DNA from: a virus
Virus record (IMG/VR): IMGVR_UViG_3300017756_000077
Span: 1-28,143 of that record
Length of the DNA stretch: 28,143 nucleotides
Strand: one strand, 5' to 3'
The position numbers were made by a program, and so were the translations under genes. Positions 45 through 19,872 of the stretch are shown piece by piece. Below the pieces are notes generated by a model, which saw only the letters and a program-made list of their open reading frames with translations, was not told the DNA's origin and made no database searches. How positions within the stretch are numbered: the first letter of the stretch is position 1; the number at the start of each line of letters is the position of its first letter.

Positions 45-98
45 GGGGCGCACACAAGATAGCTTTACTCTCCTTCCCCAAGTTAGCTATCGCGCCCC
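45..98. repeat. Two-part GC-rich inverted repeat with one-sided bulge
   Basis: Outer arms GGGGCGC (45-51) and GCGCCCC (92-98) pair perfectly. Inner arms GATAGCT (58-64) and AGCTATC (85-91) also pair perfectly. On the plus strand a 6-nt bulge (ACACAA, 52-57) lies on one side only, and the loop is 20 nt (65-84). This gives 14 paired positions, GC-rich on the outside, in an otherwise AT-rich genome. The stop codon of the HTH gene (83-85) sits at the loop edge, and on the minus strand the loop carries an AAGGAG sequence. It could be a transcript-end structure, a riboregulator of a gene beyond the window, or a DNA-level site. The function is not established. Confidence 0.6.
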
Positions 99-529
99 AC
101 CTGCTCGCGCAAGTGCGCACCTAGACCAACCAATAGAAAATGCTTCTTCCCACCCGCTTGCGATTTCCTCAACCGCTTGCGCTCACCCTCTAGCACACAC
201 CATAGAACTTCTTTCTCTAACAGCTCACTCATCCCCCGACTCGCGCTCGTTCTATGTACCCCTATCATCTTGCAATAATAACTAATGGCATCATGGCTAC
301 TCCAGGTTTGCCATCGATACCGCTCGCACACGCTCCAAAGTAACAGCTTCGCTACTGGCGATAAATCTTCTCGCCCCGCGTGCGTGCGATAGAGATTCCA
401 TATTTCTTTTTTTAACTTAGAATAATCGCGAAAGGTTTTATCGAACTCGATGGATATGAGTGCGCTCTCGCGCTCGCGCTCAATGTTCCCCGCGCTCACC
501 CACCAGGAATTTTTTAATTCTTCTCTCAT
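83..529 (-). CDS. Winged-helix (HTH_36-like) DNA-binding protein, possible replication initiator or regulator
   Basis: The protein has 148 residues from ATG 529, which has a strong AAGGAG ribosome site 5-6 nt upstream. A longer frame from a TTG at 559 lies inside a hairpin and is disfavoured. Residues about 56-115 (from LSPVAKLLLW to LLEKEVLW) follow the helix pattern of HTH_36 proteins: a conserved first helix, then a recognition segment around IGVHRTSASRGMSELL. Such domains occur in phage and plasmid replication initiators and in regulators. The C-terminus is basic (RKRLRKSQAGGKK). The N-terminal part is charged, and its codons are unusually GC-rich (GCGCTC repeats at 462-481). It lies downstream of four palindromic 22-bp repeats, so binding to them is a reasonable inference. 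Family membership is judged by eye. Confidence 0.7.
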   Translation of the reverse strand: MREELKNSWWVSAGNIERERESALISIEFDKTFRDYSKLKKEIWNLYRTHAGREDLSPVAKLLLWSVCERYRWQTWSSHDAISYYCKMIGVHRTSASRGMSELLEKEVLWCVLEGERKRLRKSQAGGKKHFLLVGLGAHLREQVGRDS

Positions 530-550
530 ACTTCTCCTTTCTTTCTTGAA

Positions 551-582
551 GAGACACAAAACCCCTTAAGGGTTTTTGTCTC
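551..582. other. Bulged 13-bp hairpin in the leader of the HTH gene
   Basis: GAGACA (551-556) pairs with TGTCTC (577-582), and AAAACCC (558-564) pairs with GGGTTTT (570-576). A single C bulge lies at 557 and the loop is CTTAA. Read leftwards it sits just upstream of the ribosome site and ATG of the HTH gene at 529, so it would be a 5'-UTR hairpin or a weak terminator/attenuator between the small-gene operon and that gene. Only four T residues follow the GC part on the minus strand, so intrinsic termination is uncertain. Confidence 0.45.
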
Positions 583-613
583 TATATATATATTTCATAT
601 ATATACGGATATT
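583..613. other. AT-rich stretch next to the repeat array
   Basis: This is a nearly pure alternating T/A tract (TATATATATATTTCATATATATA), broken only by a few C/G bases near its right end. It lies between the bulged hairpin and the 22-bp repeats. An AT-rich tract beside iterons is the usual layout of a DNA unwinding element. It could equally hold the promoter of the HTH gene, since several TATATA hexamers fit a -10 box, but no convincing -35 box was found. The whole interval 530-691 has no gene and holds only this tract, the hairpin and the repeats. Confidence 0.4.
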
Positions 614-696
614 TGTAGCGTTATGCTATAGTCGTTGCAGTGATTTGCTACAGTCGTTGTAGCGTTATGCTACAAGCATTGTAGCGCTTTGCTACA
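614..696. repeat. Four tandem 17-bp palindromes at an exact 22-bp period (iteron or operator array)
   Basis: Copies start at 614, 636, 658 and 680. Each has the form TGTAGC-N5-GCTACA: TGTAGCGTTATGCTATA, TGCAGTGATTTGCTACA, TGTAGCGTTATGCTACA and TGTAGCGCTTTGCTACA. Spacers are 5 nt (GTCGT, GTCGT, AGCAT). A 22-bp period is about two helical turns, so bound dimers would lie on one face of the DNA. The array is upstream of the winged-helix gene and next to an AT tract. Both replication iterons and repressor operators look like this, and the sequence alone does not decide between them. The repeat geometry is directly visible. Confidence 0.85.
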
Positions 697-766
697 AGCT
701 AACCAATACCACCAAGCAACATAACAAGCCGATTAAGGCTAATTTCATCATCATTTCATGGTTCAT
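692..766 (-). CDS. Tiny single-span membrane peptide (24 aa)
   Basis: ATG at 766 overlaps the stop of the preceding 59-aa gene as ATGA, and the frame ends in TAG at 692-694. The peptide reads MNHEMMMKL followed by a hydrophobic run (about residues 8-24, rich in Leu, Val and Cys) that could span a membrane once. The stop overlaps the last palindromic repeat by 5 nt. It has no family I recognise. The start-stop coupling and uninterrupted hydrophobicity favour a real product, but at this length chance is possible. Confidence 0.4.
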   Translation of the reverse strand: MNHEMMMKLALIGLLCCLVVLVSL

Positions 767-1208: not shown

Positions 1209-1345
1209 TGTTCACCTCTCGTTTGTATTTCAAAGTGATTGATTTCATTTCTCTCAACCGCTTCTTTAAACTTCTTTTTAAGTTCATCTTGACTTAGATT
1301 GATCGCATCATCAATGAAGACCACACCTTTAACTGCATCGCTCAT
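1205..1345 (-). CDS. Hypothetical 46-aa protein coupled to the methyltransferase gene
   Basis: ATG 1345 overlaps the methyltransferase stop as ATGA, and its own stop TGA overlaps the next ATG (1208) in the same way. The protein begins MSDAVKGVVFIDDAINLSQD and continues as a charged helix (ELKKKFKEAVER). No family is recognised. The double start-stop overlaps on both sides are the main support. The ribosome site is weak (TGGA), so translation probably depends on termination of the upstream gene. Confidence 0.55.
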   Translation of the reverse strand: MSDAVKGVVFIDDAINLSQDELKKKFKEAVERNEINHFEIQTRGEQ

Positions 1346-2481
1346 ATTTCCATGTTCTTTAAAATGTGTGCTATGACCTCTATAGTCCAGCCATTTCCGA
1401 GCATTTGGTAGCGTCTTGTATTTGATACATGGTTCGTGTAATTATCTGGTACTGTTTGCAAGCGCTCACATTCGATAGGTTTTAGCTTGCGCCAATAGAC
1501 TTCTTGTTCTTCGGTTATTTGCAATATATGTTGTTTGGTTAATGCGCTTGTAAGGGTGTTCATTTTCTCATCTTGCCTTTCAACCAAATGTCTCATATGC
1601 CTGGGCGACCAATCTTTTCCTGTTTTTCTTTTATGCTCATATCTTATTTGATTGGCTTCAGGTGTTCTTACTTCTGTCATAGCCCTAACATCAACTAACT
1701 TCTGCGGTATTCCTGTTGCGTGAAAAGTACCACTTCTTTCAAAGTTTGCTTTAGATGATTTGTAATACTGCGATTTAATTGTTTGCGACTTTTCTGGTAA
1801 GTCATTAGTATCGTCAACTAACTTTTGTGGCACTAAAATCATGCCATTGTTTCCAGAATCTTTAAAAACCATTTGCCTTCTACTTTTCTTTAAATAGTTT
1901 TCAACACTTGAACCTTTGTAATAGTTAGCATCCAGACAATGACTTTTATCTCTTTCGGTATTGAAGCCATCTTCGAGAACATCTTTCAGAACAACTCCTC
2001 TATCCTTAGGTTGCTCAACATTAGGAATGTTAGTCCAATAGTATCTCTGTCTTGATTGAGCGGAAACTAAAGAGCTATTAATAAAGATAGGTTCAACGCC
2101 CATATATTCAGATATAACATCCAAGTATTCTTTTTTCATCTTCACATTTTCTAGTAAAAAATATTTCGGCTGTAAATATGAGATAGCTTTGTGAAACTCA
2201 AAAAATAACATGGATCGAGGATCATCGAATGCAAGCTGCTTACCAGCAAAACTAAATCCTTGACATGGTGAACCACCCATCACCAAATCAATCTTTGGCA
2301 AAGTAGACAAATCTAACTTGGTAATATCACCCACTTGAATAATCTCTGGGTAATTAGCCGCGCTCACTTGCATGGCATACTTATCAATCTCACTTGCGTA
2401 ATACTTATCGACTTTAATGCCTAGCCTGTCCAAGGCTAACATTCCGCAAGACATACCATCAAACAGACTTAATACATTCAC
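1342..2481 (-). CDS. C5-cytosine DNA methyltransferase
   Basis: The protein has 379 residues. Motif I (SLFDGMSCGMLALD, residues 5-18) binds S-adenosylmethionine. Motif IV GGSPCQGFSFAG has the catalytic C73, motif VI is ENV (111-113), motif VIII is QSRQRYYW (142-149), and motif X is GNGWTIEVIAHIL near the C-terminus. The variable region between VIII and IX carries the target-recognition part. All catalytic motifs are intact, so the enzyme should methylate cytosine C5. No partner restriction enzyme is adjacent, so it is an orphan enzyme likely used against host restriction or for regulation. A GGAGG site lies 9 nt before ATG 2481. The target sequence cannot be read from the protein by eye. Confidence 0.92.
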   Translation of the reverse strand: MNVLSLFDGMSCGMLALDRLGIKVDKYYASEIDKYAMQVSAANYPEIIQVGDITKLDLSTLPKIDLVMGGSPCQGFSFAGKQLAFDDPRSMLFFEFHKAISYLQPKYFLLENVKMKKEYLDVISEYMGVEPIFINSSLVSAQSRQRYYWTNIPNVEQPKDRGVVLKDVLEDGFNTERDKSHCLDANYYKGSSVENYLKKSRRQMVFKDSGNNGMILVPQKLVDDTNDLPEKSQTIKSQYYKSSKANFERSGTFHATGIPQKLVDVRAMTEVRTPEANQIRYEHKRKTGKDWSPRHMRHLVERQDEKMNTLTSALTKQHILQITEEQEVYWRKLKPIECERLQTVPDNYTNHVSNTRRYQMLGNGWTIEVIAHILKNMEI

Positions 2482-2537: not shown

Positions 2538-4370
2538 TTAAAAATCTCCAAAATTAAAGTTGCTCTCTTTGTAAGGCTCAAGCACGGCCTCTTTTCTAAA
2601 CAATGTCTTGATTGATACATCGACTTCGGATGAATTACTTTTCACCACCGCACCCTTCACCACGCGCAACCGCTCATAGTCCACTCCATTATCAATACAA
2701 ATTCTCTCCGCTTCTTCTTCATTCGCTAACCACAAGGCTATTGCTAACCTATGACCATCGACTAAAGAAGATGCGCCTCGTATCTTACTGCGCACATTCA
2801 TCGGATCGTCATCAGCTTGGAGAGCCGCTTTTGACATATGATGAATACTTAGGGTGCAACAGTTAAAGCGCGAGGAGATAGAGGCGCAAAGTTGACAGTA
2901 AAGTTGAGCAGCTTCATTAGATGAACTAATCGGCGCTCCACTCATGGCTTGGATTGGGTCAATGATAACCAGTTCTAAATTCGGTATGGTTTCTAATTCA
3001 GCTAAGAGTTCTCTAGCTTGATCGGTGATTTGTAAACCTTTGGAATCATCTCTAATGAGTATTAAAGGTTCAGGTTGATCGGGGATTGTATGGGTGAATA
3101 CATCGTAAGGTGCATCGAATCTTTTATTACCTTTATCCAAAGCATTGATTCGTCTATGGATTTCAACCAAGTCATCCTCGGCTGATAGTATCACCACATT
3201 ACCGCCTTTGAGTATGGGATGATCAAACCACATTCCAGAGCCTTGCGATACTTTAATGGCTAAATCTAATGCCATCATGGATTTACCTACCCCACCAATC
3301 GAGGCAAGGATACCAGGCTTGGATATTTCTAACAGTTTATCCACAAGCCAAACTTTTGGCGGCGGTTCTTTAACTAGGTTTCTAATGGGGTGTTTGGTTA
3401 GACCTAAACCTTGATTAAGTATTTCTAATCTAACTCTATCTAATCCATGAGTTTTAGCTAAATCGTTATAGTCTCCTCTCGCGCTCGGCACGCGCACGAA
3501 ACAGTTAGGAATGGCAGATGCTACCTCGTTAGCTTTCCTCTCTCCTACGCCGTTCTCATCGTTATCTAGGGCTATATATAATCTTGCCTGAGATATCTTC
3601 CTAATATTAGTAACAGCCTCCAGAGTAAAGTTCGCAGAAAATACGCAAACTGTCGGTATCTTCGTACTTTCATAAACTGTGGCTGCGGTTGAGTATCCCT
3701 CAACAATAATTAAGTTTTCTTGCGTGGCTAATGTTGATGGCTCGCACCCAATAAGAAAAACATTACCTTTAATTTCGCTCGCGCTCACAAATCTTTTCTG
3801 TCCTTTCTTATCGATATACTGTAAACTACGCACCTCTCCGCTTACTGCTGAGATAACAGGAACAATTAAACTTCCGTTCAGTTGTTTCAATCCATAGCTT
3901 TTAACATTTTTACTATTTAGATACTCATGCGAGATCACGGGCTGACAGTTCTTATATCTTTCTTTTACTTCTTTAGCTACTTCATCATGCCTAACTTTCT
4001 TCGCTACTTCGGCCCGCTCAATAGCTTCCTCCATTCTTTTTTGTAGTGCGACTCTATCAATGTTAGATAGTTGATTGGTGTTAATGCTTGACCACTTATG
4101 TTGTTCACCAGTTCGCCAGTTACCAAAAGTTGCAAAATAATTTCCGTCTAGCTCGTTGATAACATACCAACCGCTACGCTCATTGCCTTTGTCTGGTCTA
4201 ACACCAGGCGCAGACTTGACTGGAACTCGCGTAACCTTGCCTGTTAAATCTAATTGATTTACATACAAGCCTTGGTTATTCATCTCGTTTTGCAGATCAT
4301 AGATATTATTTCCTTGCTGGAAATTATGATCTTGATTGTTTGTAATTACCCTATATTTAGTCAGATCCAT
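2538..4370 (-). CDS. TOPRIM primase fused to RepA-like helicase
   Basis: The protein has 610 residues from ATG 4370, which overlaps the upstream stop by 14 nt with AAGG about 9 nt before it. An in-frame ATG at 4412 would add 14 residues but lacks a ribosome site. The N-terminal part has the YFATFGNWRTGE segment typical of phage TOPRIM primases. The TOPRIM domain follows: LIIVEGYS (Glu near residue 224) and ALDNDENG (the D-x-D near 269-271). The C-terminal part is a RecA-fold helicase of the RepA/AAA_25 type: Walker A SIGGVGKS (about 357-364), ILSAEDD, Walker B LVIIDP (about 467-472) and SIHHMSK. It should prime and unwind DNA at the phage fork. No DNA polymerase is seen in the window. Confidence 0.9.
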   Translation of the reverse strand: MDLTKYRVITNNQDHNFQQGNNIYDLQNEMNNQGLYVNQLDLTGKVTRVPVKSAPGVRPDKGNERSGWYVINELDGNYFATFGNWRTGEQHKWSSINTNQLSNIDRVALQKRMEEAIERAEVAKKVRHDEVAKEVKERYKNCQPVISHEYLNSKNVKSYGLKQLNGSLIVPVISAVSGEVRSLQYIDKKGQKRFVSASEIKGNVFLIGCEPSTLATQENLIIVEGYSTAATVYESTKIPTVCVFSANFTLEAVTNIRKISQARLYIALDNDENGVGERKANEVASAIPNCFVRVPSARGDYNDLAKTHGLDRVRLEILNQGLGLTKHPIRNLVKEPPPKVWLVDKLLEISKPGILASIGGVGKSMMALDLAIKVSQGSGMWFDHPILKGGNVVILSAEDDLVEIHRRINALDKGNKRFDAPYDVFTHTIPDQPEPLILIRDDSKGLQITDQARELLAELETIPNLELVIIDPIQAMSGAPISSSNEAAQLYCQLCASISSRFNCCTLSIHHMSKAALQADDDPMNVRSKIRGASSLVDGHRLAIALWLANEEEAERICIDNGVDYERLRVVKGAVVKSNSSEVDVSIKTLFRKEAVLEPYKESNFNFGDF

Positions 4371-4710
4371 CGCGTATAACCTTGTCCATATGACCAGTAC
4401 GGGCTTGTTCATTAGCCCAAGTCATATATTCATTTACCACGCGACCAAATAATAGTTCTCTGTCTGTTCTTTCCCACTCGTGCATGACAAATGTGCCACG
4501 CTTTTTTGATATATCTAAGTAAGTTTCTCTCGACTGTGTGATTGCATAATCTATCCCTTCATCACACACAACTGCTATTCTTTTCAACTTATTATCCTCG
4601 CGTAATAGTTTTAAATGTTCCATAGAGCAAGCTCCATGTATTGTGTTCTCTCCAATCTTCAGGAATGGCCCAGTCGGTATGCGACAATAGCCACATAACG
4701 CTGGGCGCAT
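4357..4710 (-). CDS. Putative zinc-finger protein of the replication module
   Basis: The protein has 117 residues from ATG 4710. The longer frame would need a GTG at 4755 inside the upstream gene. The start directly follows an A8 run and has no ribosome site, so it is probably coupled to the SSB-like gene ending at 4721. The N-terminus holds CGYC-x16-HGAC, then SMEHLKLL, a likely treble-clef zinc site made from C6, C9, a His and C28. The rest is alpha/beta with no recognised fold. It lies between the SSB-like and primase-helicase genes, so a role at the fork or as a loading factor is an inference. Confidence 0.7.
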   Translation of the reverse strand: MRPALCGYCRIPTGPFLKIGENTIHGACSMEHLKLLREDNKLKRIAVVCDEGIDYAITQSRETYLDISKKRGTFVMHEWERTDRELLFGRVVNEYMTWANEQARTGHMDKVIRDGSD

Positions 4711-5228: not shown

Positions 5229-5429
5229 TTAACCTGGATCGTAAGAATCATAATCAGATAAGTATTTGATTAAATCCTCACAATCCGCCTGCATTGAAAT
5301 AAGCCAATGTAATCCGTCAAGAGGTAATGAGTTGTCCTCTGGATTGATAGAATCTATGTGTTTATTCAAGATCATATCAAACAGTTTTAAGGTTCTCTTT
5401 ACTCTTTCAACTTCTCCTAATCGGCTCAT
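5229..5429 (-). CDS. Hypothetical 66-aa acidic helical protein
   Basis: ATG 5429 overlaps the ATPase stop as ATGA, with a GAGG site about 9 nt upstream. The frame could be extended to a GTG at 5459, but this is less likely. The protein begins MSRLGEVERVKRTLKLFDMI and ends in an Asp/Tyr-rich tail (DYDSYDPG). It is predicted helical, with no recognised family. Its place between the Sak4-like ATPase and the SSB-like protein suggests an accessory role in recombination or replication. Confidence 0.6.
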   Translation of the reverse strand: MSRLGEVERVKRTLKLFDMILNKHIDSINPEDNSLPLDGLHWLISMQADCEDLIKYLSDYDSYDPG

Positions 5430-6154
5430 TTCAACATTTCCTCTCTTATGGTTGCCCACTCAAAAGGCATCTCACTGGGCAAGCCATATCTATTCTTGGC
5501 CATATAACCAGGTGCTTGCTCAGTAAAAATAGTTCTGTCGCCAGCAACAGTCTTGGTAGTCATACCCATCTTGCCTTTGACTTGTACAGTTCCAACTTTA
5601 TAGTTGGCAAAAAAGACTGCATCGCTATGTTCTACCAACAGGTCAGCAGCTTTACGATGTAGTTTGATTTCATGTCGATCATGTGGATCATTAGATGGGT
5701 CTTCATATCTGCGAATCTGATTGTGTGCAATCTGTATTACAGTCATAGACTTTTCATCTCTGAGTTTGTTAAGAACCTCAACATACTCTTTCCACTTATC
5801 AAGAGCTGCAACATAGCCTTTACCATATGCAGGTGTATCTATTTGCGCCCAGCCATTTTCATTACAAACATGATCCCATAACAAAGTTTCTAACCAGTCT
5901 AATGAATCAATACAGGCAACACGAAACTCGTGATCTTCTGTAAGTAAAGAATTTAAGTTAGTCATAAACTCTTCATAGCTTTTGGCTACTGGAAAGTGAT
6001 CGCACTCAATCTTACCGATACCATCTTCAGATTGTACGATTACACATTTATCCATGCTTGCAGCAAATGATGTTTTACCAATACCGCCTGGGCCATAACA
6101 TATAAGTCTTGGTGGTTTTACTTTACCTTTCTTTTGGATTGCAGCTAAACTCAT
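5426..6154 (-). CDS. RecA-fold ATPase, AAA_24 / Sak4-like recombinase
   Basis: The protein has 242 residues. Walker A is YGPGGIGKTSFAA (20-32) and Walker B is VACIDSLDWLE in the first half. MTVIQIAHNQIRRYEDPSNDP and LVEHSDAVFFANYK follow, as usual in phage AAA_24 ATPases. This short RecA-like core without the extra RecA domains is the form called Sak4, which promotes annealing or strand exchange, usually with a phage SSB partner; an SSB-like gene lies two genes on. The start ATG 6154 overlaps the preceding stop as ATGA. A plain DNA-binding ATPase loader is the alternative. Confidence 0.8.
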   Translation of the reverse strand: MSLAAIQKKGKVKPPRLICYGPGGIGKTSFAASMDKCVIVQSEDGIGKIECDHFPVAKSYEEFMTNLNSLLTEDHEFRVACIDSLDWLETLLWDHVCNENGWAQIDTPAYGKGYVAALDKWKEYVEVLNKLRDEKSMTVIQIAHNQIRRYEDPSNDPHDRHEIKLHRKAADLLVEHSDAVFFANYKVGTVQVKGKMGMTTKTVAGDRTIFTEQAPGYMAKNRYGLPSEMPFEWATIREEMLK

Positions 6155-6399
6155 TTAGCCACCTCAACCTTAGATTCATCACCCTCAACAGCTTCTTTCA
6201 AAGCGTTGCTGTAATGTTTGCCAAGTATCTCTAACTTCTCTACTTCAAAGTTAGCGTTAGCAATGACCTCTTGCCTTTGTTGGTTAACAAGGGTCACTTT
6301 GTTATATAGAATCTTGTTCTCTTCAGACAAATCATCTACCTTATATTCTTTACCATCCTCATTAAAGGTAAAGGTTAGTTCTTTAGTTTCTTCAACCAT
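6151..6399 (-). CDS. Small helical protein, DUF6447-like
   Basis: The protein has 82 residues. A short beta N-terminus (LTFTFNEDGKEYKVDDLSEE) is followed by one long helix (NKVTLVNQQRQEVIANANFE). This GKEY-x-DDLSEE plus helix layout fits the small DUF6447 proteins of aquatic phages, whose function is unknown; the match is from memory. AGGAG lies 6 nt before ATG 6399. The gene overlaps the nuclease gene by 8 nt and the ATPase gene by 4 nt, so it is made as part of the recombination module. Confidence 0.65.
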   Translation of the reverse strand: MVEETKELTFTFNEDGKEYKVDDLSEENKILYNKVTLVNQQRQEVIANANFEVEKLEILGKHYSNALKEAVEGDESKVEVAK

Positions 6400-7126
6400 A
6401 TTTCTCTCCTAGAGTAGTTTTATAAGTATCACAATTTGCCTTGGCATTACAAAATCTGCAATGATCTCCCGCAACATATTGTGGGTTTTCTTCGTCACAA
6501 GCATCCGTTGCTTGTTTCAAATCGTTGTAGCCCCAATCAACCAGATTGGTAGCTGAAATCTCGTATGTTCTTATAGGGCCATCCTTATGCCAACCGCGTG
6601 GTTGTACAATGCTCAGCTCCATGGTGGTATTCTCATCCCCATACCGCGCGAGCGCACCCAGACCATAAATCATTAACTGCTTATTCCTTTCGACATCGAC
6701 ACCCCACTTACCAGACTTTAAATCTATAACAGCGATGCGATCTTCACCAATTAATATTGTGTCAGCAGTACCAAAACACTTTGTTGATATCTCATCCATG
6801 TAGACTTTTTCTTCTATCAACATCTTGGCGTTAAGTTCTTCTTTTCTTTTATGTATGTACTCTACATAAGTCTCCGCGCACGCAATCATATCCTCATCAA
6901 CCTCTATCTCAAAGTCTTCAACCACCTGGACTTTACCTAACCAATAGTCACGCAATGTCATGTCCTTGAGCCTGCCTTTTAATAGCATCTCGCACATCTC
7001 ATGTATAAGCGTTCCTGTAGCCGCAGGGATGCCTACCTTGTATTCTGCTGAATAGTTTAGGTACGCGCTCGCTGGGCATTTAAACCAGCGATCTGAGGAT
7101 GAGGGGCTAAATATTGCGTGAGCCAT
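6392..7126 (-). CDS. Cas4-like PD-(D/E)XK exonuclease with Fe-S cysteines (DUF2800)
   Basis: The protein has 244 residues. The N-terminus SSSDRWFKCPAS carries C17, then TGTLIHEMCE gives the early His/Glu (H42, E43). The nuclease core is FGTADTILIG (D122) and VIDLKSGKW (D135, K137), followed by QLMIYG (Q150, Y154), the QxxxY motif of RecB-type nucleases. C223, C226 and C232 near the end together with C17 match the four-cysteine Fe-S lock of Cas4/AddB nucleases. It likely resects DNA ends to feed the Sak4-like ATPase two genes on. The start at 7126 has no clear ribosome site and overlaps the HTH gene by 20 nt. Confidence 0.85.
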   Translation of the reverse strand: MAHAIFSPSSSDRWFKCPASAYLNYSAEYKVGIPAATGTLIHEMCEMLLKGRLKDMTLRDYWLGKVQVVEDFEIEVDEDMIACAETYVEYIHKRKEELNAKMLIEEKVYMDEISTKCFGTADTILIGEDRIAVIDLKSGKWGVDVERNKQLMIYGLGALARYGDENTTMELSIVQPRGWHKDGPIRTYEISATNLVDWGYNDLKQATDACDEENPQYVAGDHCRFCNAKANCDTYKTTLGEKYG

Positions 7127-7401: not shown

Positions 7402-7704
7402 ATGAGTATAGATAATGTAACCCCAGAGGAATGGGATCAAGCAATTGATATGCTTGCGATCAATAACCAGGTAGGTGGCAATCATTATAAAGGCAATGGC
7501 ATACAACCCATTGAGTATATTTACGCAAATGGATTGTCATGGTCAATGGGTAATGTGTTGAAACTTATTACCAGAGATAAGGTTGATAAGGTTGAAGACT
7601 TACTTAAAGCCAAGCATTACATTGACCTTGAACTACAGCTTGTACATGGTGTAGACGGAGAGGGTAACAAATTAGGCCAATATACCAAAGAGGTAAAGGT
7701 CTAG
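7402..7704 (+). CDS. DUF3310 protein
   Basis: The protein has 100 residues. The core reads VGGNHYKGNGIQPIEYIYAN, then SMGNVLKLITRDK and DLLKAKHYIDLEL. This matches the DUF3310 pattern (HYK, P-I-E-x-I, GNxxKxxxR, DLxKAxxYxD). The domain is widespread in phages, sometimes fused to nucleotide kinases, and has no settled function. It is one of only two plus-strand genes in the window, with its own likely promoter and a strong AAGGAG site. Being set apart from both large leftward units suggests separate timing. Confidence 0.85.
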   Translation: MSIDNVTPEEWDQAIDMLAINNQVGGNHYKGNGIQPIEYIYANGLSWSMGNVLKLITRDKVDKVEDLLKAKHYIDLELQLVHGVDGEGNKLGQYTKEVKV

Positions 7705-7714
7705 GAGTAAAGCA

Positions 7715-7930
7715 ATGAACTTGTTTGATTTTGAAGATCCAGTTTTAAATGAGAGGAACAACAATACGCCTGTTTATGTAAACAGACACATTGCGCGTTC
7801 TTTGATAGATGTAGCTGGGTTGGAAAACAAAGATCCTCAAGCATTAGCGGAGTATTTCCTGCAAGTAGGAATACACTCCGTTAAGCATTACAAGGATCAA
7901 GAGGTTGTATTTGATATTGATAATATCTAA
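7715..7930 (+). CDS. Hypothetical 71-aa protein
   Basis: The start has GGAG 8 nt upstream, ten bases after the DUF3310 stop, so it is the second gene of the plus-strand pair. The protein begins MNLFDFEDPVLNERNNNTPV and later has a helix (KDPQALAEYFLQVGIHSVKH) followed by an acidic end. No family is recognised. Its stop TAA overlaps, on the opposite strand, the TAG stop of the nuclease gene arriving from the right. Confidence 0.65.
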   Translation: MNLFDFEDPVLNERNNNTPVYVNRHIARSLIDVAGLENKDPQALAEYFLQVGIHSVKHYKDQEVVFDIDNI

Positions 7931-8325
7931 CTAAGATTTTTCAATATGTCTTTGATGTTTTTAACAGCATCATTGTTCTTCATGTGTTCATCAATGATGG
8001 TTAATTGAGCTTGGTCTAAAGGTTTAGAAAACACCACGTTTTTGTGCGGTACTGCCACAAAAGCAAACACATCTATTTCGTTATTTTTATATTGTCTGTT
8101 TTTTGCGTGTTGACCTTTACGCATATCAAACCGCCAGTTGCCTCTGCGTTCTTCTATTTGTGATTGGGTTTTGACCTGGCACTTATACAGCTTTAGGTTG
8201 TGTTCAAAGATGATGTCTGCGGATGCGTTGTGTGGAACGATGGTTACTGTGTCAGAAACTTGAGAAAGGATTGCTGCTGTGAGATATTCACCAAAACGAC
8301 CAACTCGTTCTGTTGCAAGGGGCAT
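7927..8325 (-). CDS. Small PD-(D/E)XK nuclease
   Basis: The protein has 132 residues. RVGRFGEYLTAAIL gives the first helix with a Glu, NASADIIFEH holds the catalytic Asp, and LYKCQVKTQS holds the Q-x-K that replaces E-x-K. This order is the small endonuclease fold of the PDDEXK_5/Holliday-resolvase group. The C-terminal half (FAFVAVPHKNVVF) is typical too. It is the last gene of the virion unit, 3 nt after the 668-aa protein, and its start lacks a clear ribosome site. It may cut incoming or branched DNA, or be a homing-type enzyme. The substrate cannot be inferred. Confidence 0.7.
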   Translation of the reverse strand: MPLATERVGRFGEYLTAAILSQVSDTVTIVPHNASADIIFEHNLKLYKCQVKTQSQIEERRGNWRFDMRKGQHAKNRQYKNNEIDVFAFVAVPHKNVVFSKPLDQAQLTIIDEHMKNNDAVKNIKDILKNLS

Positions 8326-14542: not shown

Positions 14543-15574
14543 TTAGCTTTCTAAGGCTGTAATTCTTGCTTCTAGTTCTTGTATGGTTTTGACCAATAAT
14601 GGCACAAGCTTGGCTTGATCTATGCCCTGATATTCAGGATTACCATCATCATCGACTGCATCTTTTGTACCAGTAATGGCCTCGGGAACTATGTCTGAAA
14701 CCTCATGTGCAATAAAGCCATCAACCAATGTGTTGTCATCATCAGATATCCAGCTAAACCTTGCTGGCTTGAGTTGTTTTAGTCTTGAGGTTGCATCCCA
14801 TGTATAGTCTACATTTTGTTTTAGCCTGTAGTCTGAGGATGTGTTAAATGCTGTTGTGGTTGATGATCCAGTTGGTAGAGAAATACTACCTGCCAATGTG
14901 CCACTAGAATTGTAAAATGTCTGCACATAAGCATCGTTAATATTCCAATTGGTTACTTTAAATGCAGCTACCGCATTACCAGTTCCGCCACTACCACCAT
15001 TATTGTGAAAGTATGCAGCTTCGTTGTTAACACTTTGAACACTTAACTTGCCACCCAAAGTGCTAGATGTGCCTATGTTAACTTCTTGAGAGCTACTAGA
15101 AGAATCTGTTAAAAACACTTGATATCCATTTGTTAAGGTAATCATTGTGCTTGTAGAATTATCATCAATACCACCCGAAGTAAATCCTGTCAGCGTACCA
15201 ACGCTTGTAATGTTAGGTTGTGCTGCTGTTAAAACTGTTCCTGTAATATTGCCTGTGACATTACCCGTGACGCTGCCTGTTAAATCACCAGTGACATTGC
15301 CTGTAACATTACCTGTTAAATTACCAGTAACATTACCTGTAATAGATGTGCTTGCTGTTAGTGTTGTGAATGATCCAGCAGCAGGAGTAGTGCCACCAAT
15401 GACAGAACTATCAATGACTGCTCCGTCTAAGTTCATGGCCACCGAAGTACCAGTGGAACTAAATAATCCATCTACTGTATCGAGGTCAGTATTTATTTTT
15501 GTTCCCCAGGTATTGGTAGATGCACCTACCTCTGGTTTTGTTAAATTTAAGTTTGTTGTATATGTGTCTGCCAT
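14543..15574 (-). CDS. Tail fibre with S74 intramolecular chaperone (third copy)
   Basis: The protein has 343 residues. The N-terminus [19 protein letters not shown] is shared with the 714-aa fibre and probably attaches it to the tail. Residues 77-112 are nine tetrapeptide repeats (T-G-N-V type). The C-terminal S74 chaperone begins near S246/S247 ([10 protein letters not shown]252), contains [14 protein letters not shown], and ends in a leucine-rich helix ([18 protein letters not shown]). S74 domains trimerise the fibre and then cut themselves off next to the Ser. This is the shortest of three fibre genes. The receptor-binding part would be residues 113-245. A 97-nt gap before the start contains TATAAT but no matching -35 box. 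Confidence 0.85.
15239..15346 (-). repeat. Nine 12-bp tandem repeats coding for (T-G-N-V)n
   Basis: The repeats code for residues 77-112 of the 343-aa fibre, read as [15 protein letters not shown] and so on. On the plus strand the unit is close to ACATTACCTGTA. Position one of the tetrapeptide varies (N, D or S), as does position two (V, L or I). A short period with near-identical units is a natural site for slippage, so copy number may vary between relatives. The protein is likely a beta-helical or extended stalk. Confidence 0.8.
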
Positions 15575-15671
15575 AATATTCTATTTTGTTAATTTGGACT
15601 TAATTTAATCAATCCACTCTAGTTTCTTTCTATTAATTATAAAGCTAATAACCTCTATCAGGATAATTATT

Positions 15672-15923
15672 TCAAGAATTGTTAGAAATGTAATCCTTAC
15701 CAGTAGCAATCGCATCTGTGTAGCTAGACTTATCTGATGAGTCACCTGCTACATCTGGGTCTGTGTAAGCCAAGATAAGTTCAAGATGGTCTACATTTCT
15801 TTGTACCGTGTCATTTATCTCTGTTTGCTCCACGCCCTCTACATCATGTGAACCATTATCAATTGCATTAATTAAATCAACGCTATCGGTTGCTGCTGTT
15901 AGTACTTCTGATACTGTTTTCAT
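15672..15923 (-). CDS. Hypothetical 83-aa acidic protein among fibre genes
   Basis: The protein begins MKTVSEVLTAATDSVDLINA, is helical and strongly acidic, and ends in a Ser/Asp-rich stretch (DVAGDSSDKSSYTDAI). An AGGAG site lies 7 nt before ATG 15923, and the start comes 1 nt after the stop of the 600-aa fibre gene. It is followed by 97 non-coding nt. Small acidic proteins in fibre clusters can be assembly chaperones or attachment parts. No family is recognised. Confidence 0.55.
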   Translation of the reverse strand: MKTVSEVLTAATDSVDLINAIDNGSHDVEGVEQTEINDTVQRNVDHLELILAYTDPDVAGDSSDKSSYTDAIATGKDYISNNS

Positions 15924-15924
15924 T

Positions 15925-17727
15925 TTATTCTCCTAGTTGTGATTTAAGTGTTTCAACTTCTGCTGAAAGTTCTTGTATAGCTTTTACAAGCATTGGTAGC
16001 AATGCTGTTGGTGCAGCAGTGTAAATTCCATCGTCAGTTTCTTTATATATTTGGTGTCCTAAATCGCCTAAGTCTGAATAGTTTGCTACAGTGGCTTCTA
16101 ATTCTTGTGCAATAAAACCATGCATATCTATACCATCACCAGTATCTTGAACCCTGTCCTCTGAATCAGCTTCATGTATATTAGGAAACAAGGTTGAATC
16201 TACATCCTTTTTCTTTTTCCAATTGAATTTGACTGGTCTTAAATCATTTATAAAATCTAAACCCACTGGCTCATCTACAATGTTGGTTTTAAGTCTTTCG
16301 TCTGAAGTAGAACCCCAAGTTGTTGAACCCATAGAAACATAAGTTCTACTAGAACTTGAACCAAAAGTTGCATAACCTTGACCAACCCCTAAAACATTTC
16401 TGCCAATAACAACCTCACTATTAGTGCTTGTATTTGCAGGACTAGAATATGCACCCACAATAGTATGATAATTTCCTGTGGTTATATATCTTGCACCAAT
16501 TCCTATTTCAACATTTTCTGAGCCTGTGGTTATATTTTTACCTGCATCTGCTCCCACAGCAGTATTGCCTGTTCCAGAAGTATTTGCTGCTAAACAATCT
16601 GCTCCAACACCTGTATTATTATTAGCTGTCGTATTAGCTATCAATGCTCCATACCCTATCGCAGTGTTACTAGCACCTGTGGTACTTGCATACAAAGCAC
16701 TTCTTCCAACTGCTACATTATTTACAGCAGTGGTATTATTAGCTAAAGAATTAGAGCCTATTCCAACATTATCTGAGCCTGTAGTATTAGAGCCAATTGC
16801 ATTTACACCTATGGCTACATTTTCAGCTCCTGTTGAATTAGCATCTAAAGCATTTGAGCCAACTGCTGTGTTATAGGATGCTGTGGTGTTGGCATACAGT
16901 GCTGCATAACCTAAAGCTGTATTGTAATTACCTGTTGTGTTGGTGTCTAAAGCTTCATTACCTATTGCAGTATTTACTGCACCTGTGGTATTTGCTGTGA
17001 GTGCAAAATAACCAACTGCTGTATTTGTATGACCTGTTGTGTTTGCCGACAAAGAATCCTTACCAACTGATGTATTCTTAACGCCTGTGGTGTTTGCAAT
17101 CATTGCTTGATGTCCCAAAGCAGTATTATTATCACCTGTAGTATTAACTCGTAATGCCATACGACCAACTGCTGTGTTATTTCCTGCGGTGGTATTGGCT
17201 GATAGAGCTGAAGCACCTACAGCAGTGTTTTCTGCACCTGTGGTGTTTGCAAATAAAGCTGAGTAACCAATACCTACATTTTCAGAAGCAGTTGTGGTTG
17301 AGCCTACAGCATGTGTACCTATACCTACATTAAAACTTCCTGTGCTTACATCGTCTACAGCATTTACACCTATGCCAATATTGTGGCTTCCTGTTGTTAA
17401 AGTTTGACCTGCTGCAAAACCAATCATTACATTTTCATCACCACTTGTTAAAGCATTAAAAACACCAACACCTAAACCAGTGTTGTAATTAGCTGCATCA
17501 ATCGTGCCTGTGTCTGAGTCACCAACTAACAAAGATGAAGTACCAAAAGTTTTGCAATCTGATAGTCCATTAAGACTTGTAGCACCACTGCTTATTGTTG
17601 AAAAACTTAAAGTGCCTGCACCATTGGTAGTTAATGCCTGCCCATCAGAGCCATCGCTTACATTTAGAGCTGCTATTCCTACAGAGTTATCTGCTATAAG
17701 TTCACTTGGTATCTTTGTATTTGCCAT
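15925..17727 (-). CDS. Tail fibre with 17-residue YadA-like repeats and S74 chaperone
   Basis: The protein has 600 residues. The N-terminal block (about 12-46) contains NSVGIAALNVSDGSDGQALT, a segment also present inside the 714-aa fibre. Residues 82-404 are 19 repeats of 17 residues with consensus N-T-A-V/I-G-x-x-A-L-x-x-N-T-T-G-x-x, the type that forms trimeric left-handed beta-rolls in YadA-like adhesin heads. A linker and a C-terminal S74 chaperone follow: STSDERLKTN (S475, K480), GFIAQELEATV, ending in a coiled coil (LPMLVKAIQELSAEVETLKS). It is a stalked adhesive fibre, and the start abuts the previous stop (TAAATG). Confidence 0.88.
   Translation of the reverse strand: MANTKIPSELIADNSVGIAALNVSDGSDGQALTTNGAGTLSFSTISSGATSLNGLSDCKTFGTSSLLVGDSDTGTIDAANYNTGLGVGVFNALTSGDENVMIGFAAGQTLTTGSHNIGIGVNAVDDVSTGSFNVGIGTHAVGSTTTASENVGIGYSALFANTTGAENTAVGASALSANTTAGNNTAVGRMALRVNTTGDNNTALGHQAMIANTTGVKNTSVGKDSLSANTTGHTNTAVGYFALTANTTGAVNTAIGNEALDTNTTGNYNTALGYAALYANTTASYNTAVGSNALDANSTGAENVAIGVNAIGSNTTGSDNVGIGSNSLANNTTAVNNVAVGRSALYASTTGASNTAIGYGALIANTTANNNTGVGADCLAANTSGTGNTAVGADAGKNITTGSENVEIGIGARYITTGNYHTIVGAYSSPANTSTNSEVVIGRNVLGVGQGYATFGSSSSRTYVSMGSTTWGSTSDERLKTNIVDEPVGLDFINDLRPVKFNWKKKKDVDSTLFPNIHEADSEDRVQDTGDGIDMHGFIAQELEATVANYSDLGDLGHQIYKETDDGIYTAAPTALLPMLVKAIQELSAEVETLKSQLGE
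16516..17484 (-). repeat. Nineteen 51-bp tandem repeats (17 residues each)
   Basis: The units keep the frame N-T-A-V-G----A-L---N-T-T-G. Examples of unit starts are NTAVGYFALTANTTGAV, NTAIGNEALDTNTTGNY and NTALGYAALYANTTASY. The fixed Gly at unit position 5 and the NTTG turn recur in nearly every copy, while the four to six inner positions vary. Divergence between units argues for an old expansion, but neighbouring units still pair closely enough for recombination. A twentieth partial unit starts at residue 405. Confidence 0.9.
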
Positions 17728-19872
17728 TTATCCCTCTAGTGTTTCTATTCTTGATTCTAGTTGTTCAATTTTTGTTAATGCTTCTTGCAATGCTTTGGTT
17801 AAGAGTGGAACAAGTTTTGCTTGGTCTATGCCTTGATAAACATTTGCTGTATGAGAAGCTTCCCATGTTGAATCAGATGGATAAGTTTCATCTTCTTTAC
17901 CTGCTATCCAATCATCTTCTTCTATGTCTCTTGCAATGACATTACCAACATTATTAATTACTACATTTGTAAGTTCTTCTGTGGCATCTTTAGTTCCAGT
18001 GATAGCTTCTGGCACTATGTCTTCAACTTCGTGAGCTAAAAAGCCATCTACTGTAGTATTTGTGCTGTCTGCAATAAAATTAAATCTTGATGGCTTTAAT
18101 TGTTTAAGCCTAGTGGTTGCATCCCAGTCAGTGACTACATTTTCTTTAACCCTATAATCTGAAAGGTTGTTAAAAGAAACAGTGCCATTTGTTGCAAGAT
18201 AAATATTACCTTGGTTTGTTCCACCACTATCAAAAAATCTTTGTAAGTAACCATCGGCTGCTGTAGTTTTTAAAGCTATTCCAATAGAATTACCACCATT
18301 AAATTGAATACCTAATCTCTCAATTTGAATTGCAGAGGTTGTTCCACTAAGCAATCGTCCAGCACTATCAATTCTTGCACTTTCTGTGCCTTGCTGATAA
18401 AAAACAGTGTTATGACCCAATATCCCTATGTCTTTATAAGATGCTCCATTATCGCTAATAGCCATTAATCTTGCTTGCGAACCTCCTTCAAGTAAACGCC
18501 AATTAAAATCGGTTGCAAGATTAACTTCAAGTGGAGCAGCAGGACTGCATCCAATTCCAACATTTCCAGCACTATCTATCCTCATACGTTCTGTGCCTTT
18601 TGTTGCAAAAGCCAAAACACCTAATACACCACCAGAATCCCCTTGTGAATTTACAGTCCAAATTTGACCATTGGAAGATGATGAAAACTCTAACTGCCTG
18701 TGACCATCTTGAGAACCATCATCAATATATAGCACATCACTGTTTTGCGAACCTCTTAAATGTAGTTTGTATGATGGACTTACCCCAATCCCTACATTCT
18801 CTGAACTATCTATGGTTATAGCTGTAGCATCAGCAGAAGATGTAATTCCAGCAACGCCACCATCGGCAAAAGATAAAGTACCACTTCCATTAGTGGTAAG
18901 CACTTGACCATTAGTACCATCGCTTACATTAAGTTGAGTGATGCCAACTGAATTATCTGATGGAGTTCCAATTGAAACAGCTTTAGCATGATAAACAGTA
19001 ATAACTCTGCCATTTGCAGGAGCAGTTGAGAAAGTTAAGGTTGTACCTGAAACGCTGTAAGAGTCTTGTGCTTGGAATACACCATCAATGAAAACCATAA
19101 GATCGTTCTCATTACCAACGCTTGATGTGACTGTAAAGGTTGTATCAGAACCATCACCAGCAAAAATATCTGTGGTGAATGATCCACCGCCACCGCCAAT
19201 AGCACCCCACTCATTGGTGTAGCCTTCAAACTCACCAGTGGTTGTATTGTATCTGAACATACCTGCAACTGGAGTTCCATTTCTTTGAGCAGTTGTACCA
19301 CTAGAAATCTTAATTGAGTCAGTGCCACTTAAAGTCATGTTGGCAAAAGTAGGTGAATCAGAAGTAGCTACAGCTTGACCTATAGAGACTTGACCACTGC
19401 TAACTGTAACGCCAGTACCACCAGTAATTAGGCCCTGTACTTCTGCATCAGTTCTTTCAGTAAATGAGAATACGCCAGTGCTTGAGTTGTAAGCTAAATC
19501 ACCAGATGCACTAACAGCAGATCTTGCTCTAGCATTGGTAAAATAGAGGTTATTTGATCCCTCTGAAATATTATCGCTATCTTTTGTTGCAAGTCTTGTA
19601 TCAAATTTTGCATCTGTGTAATAGAGGTTAGACCCCTCTGTTATAGAACTTGTACTAACTCCGCTTAAAGTACCAGTAACATTTAATGTTCCAGCTACCG
19701 CTAAAGTTTTTCCAGATCCTACATTTAAACCTATGCTTGAGCCTGTGCCATCTGATTTAAAAATTGCATCAAGAGTATCAAGGTCTGCATTGAGGGAAAT
19801 ACCCCAAGTATCTTCTGCTTCACCTGGCTCTGGTTTAGTTAAATTTAGATTAGTTGTGTATGTATCTGCCAT
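17728..19872 (-). CDS. Large tail fibre with S74 chaperone (first copy)
   Basis: The protein has 714 residues. The N-terminus [19 protein letters not shown] matches the 343-aa fibre. A middle region carries a shared cassette around residue 300 (NSVGITQLNVSDGTNGQVLT), plus VGIGVSPSYKLHL and related repeats typical of collagen-like or beta stalks. The S74 chaperone starts near S571 (SDYRVKENV) and contains [21 protein letters not shown]. Unlike the paralogue, it then has an extra segment of about 45 residues before [13 protein letters not shown]. It ends in a coiled coil (IEQLESRIETLEG). It shares its N-terminus with copy three but a different middle, so the fibre cluster looks modular. Confidence 0.88.
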   Translation of the reverse strand: MADTYTTNLNLTKPEPGEAEDTWGISLNADLDTLDAIFKSDGTGSSIGLNVGSGKTLAVAGTLNVTGTLSGVSTSSITEGSNLYYTDAKFDTRLATKDSDNISEGSNNLYFTNARARSAVSASGDLAYNSSTGVFSFTERTDAEVQGLITGGTGVTVSSGQVSIGQAVATSDSPTFANMTLSGTDSIKISSGTTAQRNGTPVAGMFRYNTTTGEFEGYTNEWGAIGGGGGSFTTDIFAGDGSDTTFTVTSSVGNENDLMVFIDGVFQAQDSYSVSGTTLTFSTAPANGRVITVYHAKAVSIGTPSDNSVGITQLNVSDGTNGQVLTTNGSGTLSFADGGVAGITSSADATAITIDSSENVGIGVSPSYKLHLRGSQNSDVLYIDDGSQDGHRQLEFSSSSNGQIWTVNSQGDSGGVLGVLAFATKGTERMRIDSAGNVGIGCSPAAPLEVNLATDFNWRLLEGGSQARLMAISDNGASYKDIGILGHNTVFYQQGTESARIDSAGRLLSGTTSAIQIERLGIQFNGGNSIGIALKTTAADGYLQRFFDSGGTNQGNIYLATNGTVSFNNLSDYRVKENVVTDWDATTRLKQLKPSRFNFIADSTNTTVDGFLAHEVEDIVPEAITGTKDATEELTNVVINNVGNVIARDIEEDDWIAGKEDETYPSDSTWEASHTANVYQGIDQAKLVPLLTKALQEALTKIEQLESRIETLEG

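What the first reader, a model, noticed from the sequence alone, without database searches (positions are those of the whole stretch)
614..696. Four palindromes at an exact 22-bp period: iteron or operator array
Each unit is TGTAGC-N5-GCTACA and the starts are 614, 636, 658 and 680. Two helical turns per unit would set bound proteins on one face of DNA. The array lies upstream of a winged-helix gene and beside an AT tract, as in replication origins or strongly cooperative operators.
Basis: partly seen in the sequence, partly recalled or inferred. Interest (0 to 1): 0.75.

Follow-up and report, generated by a model that had tools for sequence, protein, structure and literature searches.

The report
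Phage replication-origin iteron array, 22-bp period
Four near-identical 22-base DNA repeats beside the gene for a small DNA-binding protein are very probably the site where a family of uncultured, mostly marine phages starts copying its genome, laid out much like the origin of IncQ plasmids such as RSF1010.

Summary
The array is real: four 22-bp blocks at 613-700, with dyads at 614, 636, 658 and 680. Only the last two dyads are perfect; the first two carry 1 and 2 mismatches. The window is an IMG/VR phage fragment. I compared 60 distinct upstream regions of homologues of the neighbouring winged-helix gene. Every one has a conserved ATATCC box, and nearly all show the same layout: 3-4 repeats at an exact 22-bp period (54 of 60 by autocorrelation), in fixed register to ATATCC, then an AT-rich inverted repeat, a bulged hairpin and the gene. 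Repeat sequence differs between clades and the dyad is not general; period and register are conserved. In ten long genomes the array occurs once. It always lies in the operon of a Toprim primase fused to a helicase homologous to RSF1010 RepA. IncQ oriV iterons, scanned as a control, also have a 22-bp period. The protein's only (weak) family matches are HTH_36 and phage 'replication initiation proteins'. Best reading: an iteron replication origin with its cognate initiator, a new variant of the IncQ/lambda kind. Autoregulatory operator is the main rival and is not excluded. Protein binding and origin activity are untested.

The parts
613..700 (-). Iteron array: four 22-bp blocks (613-634, 635-656, 657-678, 679-700), each with a 6-bp dyad around 5 bp in this clade; gene orientation is the minus strand
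607..612 (-). Conserved anchor box ATATCC (GGATAT on +), abutting the last block; present in all 60 distinct relatives
583..606 (-). HP1: AT-rich inverted repeat GTATATATAT-GAA-ATATATATAT; arms stay Watson-Crick complementary while their sequence changes across clades
550..583 (-). HP2: 15-bp hairpin with a one-base bulge in the 3' arm, loop TTAAG-like, no T-run after it; covarying across clades
83..529 (-). Winged-helix protein (148 aa), predicted initiator; ATG preceded by an AAGGAG ribosome-binding site, 20 bases after HP2
2538..4412 (-). Primase-helicase: Toprim_3 primase fused to an AAA_25 helicase homologous to RSF1010 RepA (PDB 1g8y)
5426..6154 (-). Sak4-like ssDNA annealing ATPase, same replication/recombination gene run
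6392..7126 (-). Phage exonuclease (phrog_69), same gene run
1342..2481 (-). C5 cytosine DNA methyltransferase lying between the helicase and the array here; not constant among relatives

Best explanation
613-700 plus the ATATCC box and the two hairpins (550-612) form the phage's replication origin, and the 148-aa winged-helix protein encoded just downstream (83-529) is its initiator. Proposed mechanism: (1) the protein binds the repeats, one site per 22 bp, so successive molecules lie on nearly the same face and build a cooperative complex [inferred]; (2) the complex strains the adjacent AT-rich stretch next to ATATCC and opens it [inferred; AT-richness and fixed register shown]; (3) the RepA-type helicase, fused to a Toprim primase and encoded in the same gene run, loads on the opened strand [homology and linkage shown, loading inferred]; (4) the exposed hairpins may serve as primase or assembly signals, as ssiA/ssiB do in RSF1010 [structure conservation shown, role speculative].
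For: In 60 distinct upstream regions of homologues an ATATCC box lies shortly before the gene, with repeats before it at lag 22 in 54, 21 in 2, 44 in 2, 43 in 1, and one unresolved because of an inverted segment. The block register to ATATCC is constant in nearly all of 14 sequence clusters, although unit sequences differ. The array is the strongest lag-22 repeat and essentially the only unit location in 10/10 long genomes. A RepA-type primase-helicase lies upstream in 40/40 loci with more than 3.5 kb upstream. The helicase matches PDB 1g8y RSF1010 RepA at E=1.9e-9 and 162 plasmid records, 157 of them mobilizable, with sampled rows annotated RepA-family helicase. IncQ plasmids scanned the same way give a 22-bp period, 38/40 and 40/40. 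HTH_36 matches 15/15 family members, and the five PHROGs matched are all replication initiation families. No sigma-70 promoter is predicted near the array on the gene strand, and only 20 bases separate HP2 from the ATG.
Against: No binding or replication experiment exists. The initiator assignment rests on weak profile scores (best HTH_36 8.9e-5, best PHROG 1.3e-4; the window protein itself is below the curated cut-off). Foldseek finds only generic MarR-like winged helices, which are mostly transcription regulators. GC skew has no minimum here; it follows gene direction. Array divergence tracks all parts of the protein about equally (r 0.73-0.85), so specific HTH-iteron co-evolution is not shown. 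Six named phages with similar helicases have no such array nearby.
Confidence: 0.78

Rival explanations
1. Autoregulatory operator: the winged-helix protein is a transcription regulator that binds the array to control its own gene or operon; HP1/HP2 act as a regulated leader or attenuator.
For: Array lies directly upstream of the gene for a MarR-like winged-helix fold; HP2 is scored terminator-like in the window; initiators often autoregulate, so this may hold in addition to the origin.
Against: No promoter-like site near the array on the gene strand. In clades where the array follows the helicase or methyltransferase directly, array, box and hairpins take up nearly all sequence between the upstream stop codon and the gene, and in the window only 20 bases follow HP2. 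No unit elsewhere in ten genomes, so no regulon. A fixed 22-bp 3-4-unit array with an AT-rich flank beside a replicative primase-helicase is origin anatomy.
Confidence: 0.12
2. RNA element: HP1 and HP2 are leader RNA structures (attenuator, processing or stability signals) and the repeats are incidental.
For: RNA fold z-score -4.6 for 535-612; hairpin arms covary across clades.
Against: Inner HP1 pairs show no G-T pair in 25 divergent sequences, where RNA would tolerate G-U; no T-run after HP2 in any of 25; no Rfam family reaches its threshold; does not explain the 22-bp DNA period or its register to ATATCC.
Confidence: 0.05
3. Partition (centromere-like) site bound by a TubR/ParR-like winged helix.
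For: A TubR fragment appears among the weak fold matches; centromeres are also iteron arrays.
Against: No tubulin- or actin-like motor or ParA-type gene was recognised among the neighbouring ORFs read in relatives; the records look like tailed phages with portal and capsid genes and a replication gene run, not plasmid prophages.
Confidence: 0.02

Closest known systems
IncQ plasmid oriV (RSF1010): RepC, RepA, RepB', ssiA/ssiB
   Same: Period of 22 bp measured here in two IncQ1 plasmids with about 3-3.5 repeats; homologous RepA-type helicase; separate iteron-binding initiator; literature describes RepC on iterons, RepA unwinding and stem-loops ssiA/ssiB primed by RepB' (PMC4234260).
   Different: Initiator is not related to RepC in sequence (hhalign probability 0.1%; RepC Pfam not hit) and is half its length; primase is Toprim_3, fused to the helicase, not RepB'; AT-rich HP1 and bulged HP2 lie right beside the array; carried by tailed phages.
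Phage lambda ori and O protein
   Same: Four repeats, each an imperfect inverted repeat in this clade, beside an AT-rich stretch, and an initiator encoded next to them; ori-lambda has four iterons of 19-bp imperfect inverted repeat plus an AT-rich region (PMC7466680).
   Different: Lambda iterons lie inside gene O and lambda uses P and host DnaB; here the array is intergenic, upstream of a shorter initiator gene, and the phage encodes its own helicase.
Phage P4 alpha protein and ori
   Same: Winged-helix origin binding, Toprim primase and helicase work together on repeats (PMC4234260).
   Different: P4 joins all three activities in one protein; here origin binding is a separate gene and the helicase is RepA-type.
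Vibrio cholerae PLE satellite RepA and iterons
   Same: Initiator DNA-binding domain and intergenic iterons differ together between relatives (PMC8263062).
   Different: [quoted passage not shown] a different initiator family by description (not compared in sequence here).

Membership tests
IncQ (RSF1010-type) replicon | Iteron array of about 3.5 repeats at 22-bp period | tested here: met
IncQ (RSF1010-type) replicon | RepA-family helicase | tested here: met
   (homology only; hexamer and activity not testable)
IncQ (RSF1010-type) replicon | RepC-family initiator (PF06504) | tested here: not met
   No PF06504 match to 15 members; hhalign to RepC probability 0.1%
IncQ (RSF1010-type) replicon | RepB' primase acting on ssiA/ssiB | tested here: not met
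   Primase is Toprim_3 fused to the helicase; conserved hairpins exist but their use is unknown
Lambda-type ori (O/P) | Iterons inside the initiator gene | tested here: not met
   Array is intergenic upstream of the gene
Lambda-type ori (O/P) | Four inverted-repeat iterons beside an AT-rich region | tested here: met
   In the window's clade only; dyad not general
HTH_36 phage replication initiators | HTH_36 domain and match to replication-initiation PHROGs | tested here: inconclusive
   HTH_36 in 15/15 members, best 8.9e-5 but 0.019 for the window protein; phrog_270 in 13/15, best 1.3e-4
Iteron-type origin | Initiator binds repeats and opens the adjacent AT-rich DNA | not testable with these tools
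   needs footprinting and an origin assay

The most novel reading that the evidence does not exclude
A tailed dsDNA phage lineage replicates by an IncQ-like route: a small HTH_36 protein opens the origin, and the conserved DNA hairpins HP1/HP2 are recognised as single-strand priming signals by a Toprim primase fused to a RepA-type helicase, giving strand-displacement synthesis without the host primosome.
Probability: 0.2. Interest if true: 0.7.

Novelty: new variant of a known kind. Interest (0 to 1): 0.5.

Why it matters
It gives a sequence-defined predicted origin and initiator for a phage group known here only from metagenomes; no homologue of the initiator was found in a 50,697-record phage collection. 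The module comes in about fourteen natural versions with the same geometry and different repeat sequences, so initiator-iteron specificity can be tested by swaps. The shared 22-bp period and RepA helicase with IncQ plasmids, but unrelated initiator and primase, suggests part exchange around a fixed origin geometry.

Tried and rejected
GC-skew minimum at the array: not found; skew follows gene direction and has only a local maximum just past the gene. Array near RepA-type helicases of six named phages: none found. Homologues of the winged-helix protein in INPHARED phages or PLSDB plasmids: none. Solved-structure sequence relatives of it: none. Foldseek gave only generic winged helices. HTH-specific co-evolution with the iterons: not separable from shared ancestry. 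Canonical terminator for HP2: rejected, no T-run after it in 25 sequences. An apparent in-frame TAG in three homologues lies upstream of the start codon. MAFFT alignment of the hairpins was out of register, so pairs were counted by script, anchored at the loop. In one search one genome (G001) was oriented with a wrong gene coordinate, corrected; the conclusion is unaffected.

Full report
OBSERVATION. The window is a 28,143-bp linear IMG/VR virus record. Four dyads start at 614, 636, 658 and 680. Units 3 and 4 are perfect TGTAGC-N5-GCTACA; units 1 and 2 have one and two mismatches. Tandem-repeat finding returns period 22 over 613-696. Lag-22 identity at the array is 35/44; the next best place in the window scores 24/44, and no shuffle of 200 reaches the observed value. 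Read in the gene's direction (minus strand) the region is: end of a small ORF, four 22-bp blocks, ATATCC (607-612), AT-rich inverted repeat HP1 (583-606), bulged hairpin HP2 (550-583), ribosome-binding site, winged-helix gene (83-529).

NEIGHBOURHOOD. On the same strand, upstream of the array, lie an exonuclease (phrog_69), a Sak4-like annealing ATPase, a primase-helicase, a C5 methyltransferase and small ORFs. The primase-helicase has Toprim_3 and AAA_25 domains and matches the RSF1010 RepA helicase structure 1g8y at E=1.9e-9. The gene order beyond the winged-helix gene is visible in relatives: a block of small opposite-strand genes, then what look like the terminase and portal genes (read from the sequences, not searched). 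The window's own portal and capsid are phrog_1216 and phrog_1328.

RELATIVES. Two scans of IMG/VR with the winged-helix protein gave 50 relatives and then 214, of which the best 80 were kept. A DNA-pattern scan for two adjacent perfect units found 11 stretches, all in contigs already listed by the protein scan. Sixty distinct upstream regions were read. Every one has ATATCC shortly before the gene, and the repeats before it have best autocorrelation lag 22 in 54, 21 in two, 44 (two periods) in two, 43 in one, and one, L022, is broken by an inverted segment.

WHAT IS CONSERVED. Unit sequence falls into 14 clusters below 72% identity. Across them the 22-bp register relative to ATATCC is constant, apart from L020/L021 with 21 bp and the irregular L022 and L053. 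In many clusters blocks end in CAA or CAT just as the last block does before ATATCC. The gene directly before the array changes (helicase in 16, methyltransferase in 6, others elsewhere), yet a primase-helicase is present upstream in all 40 loci with more than 3.5 kb of upstream sequence. So array and winged-helix gene keep together within a replication gene run.

HAIRPINS. In 25 diverse sequences HP1 is an inverted repeat of 6-10 pairs with up to four pair types per position and no G-T pair in the inner seven; HP2 has a stem with a single-base bulge after 7-9 pairs in 16 of 25 and other internal irregularities in most of the rest, and is never followed by a T-run. The longest perfect stems average 7.4 and 7.0 pairs against 4.1 and 3.8 in dinucleotide shuffles. 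The single strand 530-720 folds 7 SD better than shuffles with DNA energies, and 535-612 4.6 SD better with RNA energies. Pair counts come from loop-anchored stems found by the script, so they lean towards pairing; the shuffle comparison does not. The lack of wobble leans towards DNA-level selection but does not settle it.

PROTEIN. HTH_36 matches 15 of 15 members (best E 8.9e-5; 0.019 for the window protein, below the curated cut-off). All five PHROGs matched are replication initiation families, led by phrog_270 in 13 of 15 (best 1.3e-4). The AlphaFold model (mean pLDDT 74.7) has the helices and strands of a winged helix; Foldseek hits are generic MarR-like folds at E about 0.02, so fold does not discriminate initiator from regulator. 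The protein has no match in 50,697 phage or 72,556 plasmid records.

CONTROL AND COMPARISON. The same lag scan run on two IncQ1 plasmids found, as top hit, arrays with period 22 (38/40 and 40/40), which I take to be the oriV iterons. RSF1010 works by RepC binding iterons, RepA unwinding, and RepB' priming at stem-loops ssiA/ssiB (PMC4234260); RepA is loaded at oriV melted by RepC (PMC8965321). Ori-lambda has four 19-bp imperfect inverted-repeat iterons beside an AT-rich region (PMC7466680). The phage module therefore probably works like these, but is not an IncQ member: the initiator is not RepC and the primase is not RepB'. It is not lambda-type either, as the array is outside the initiator gene.

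AGAINST AND OPEN. There is no skew minimum; skew follows gene direction with a local maximum past the gene. Specific HTH-iteron co-evolution could not be separated from common descent; the natural pair L030/L038, with similar proteins, recognition-helix residues TAGRG versus TTGKG and units TGCGACAA versus TGCGAAGA, is only suggestive. Six named phages with similar helicases lack such an array nearby, so the link between helicase and array is a feature of this lineage. An autoregulatory operator, alone or in addition, is not excluded. All functional steps are inferred.

VERDICT. Real, conserved and most likely a replication origin with its cognate initiator; a new variant of the iteron-origin kind. 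Probability 0.78; interest 0.5.

Noticed in passing
L022, about 1063-1150 (upstream of the gene at 1249): Part of the iteron array is inverted relative to its near relatives L023/L025, apparently between inverted half-sites TGCGACA/TGTCGCA.
   Followed up: partly
window 692-766, minus strand: A 24-aa hydrophobic small ORF (MNHEMMMKLALIGLLCCLVVLVSL), kept in similar form in the window's clade, ends with its TAG stop inside the first iteron block.
   Followed up: no
window 14543-19872, minus strand: Three neighbouring tail-region ORFs share a similar C-terminal segment (RLK..KP.RF.., GFIAHE) reminiscent of the intramolecular chaperone of phage tail spikes; seen in the translations only.
   Followed up: no
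window 7402-7704, plus strand: An isolated plus-strand ORF (100 aa) in an otherwise mostly minus-strand window, where GC skew also changes sign.
   Followed up: no
L032, L038 upstream of the array: In these relatives the gene before the array looks like a different DNA methyltransferase (DPFGGSGTTG-type motif) instead of the C5 type: the slot between helicase and array is variable.
   Followed up: partly
window 7927-8325, minus strand: PD-(D/E)XK nuclease-like protein (PDDEXK_5, E=7.8e-7).
   Followed up: no
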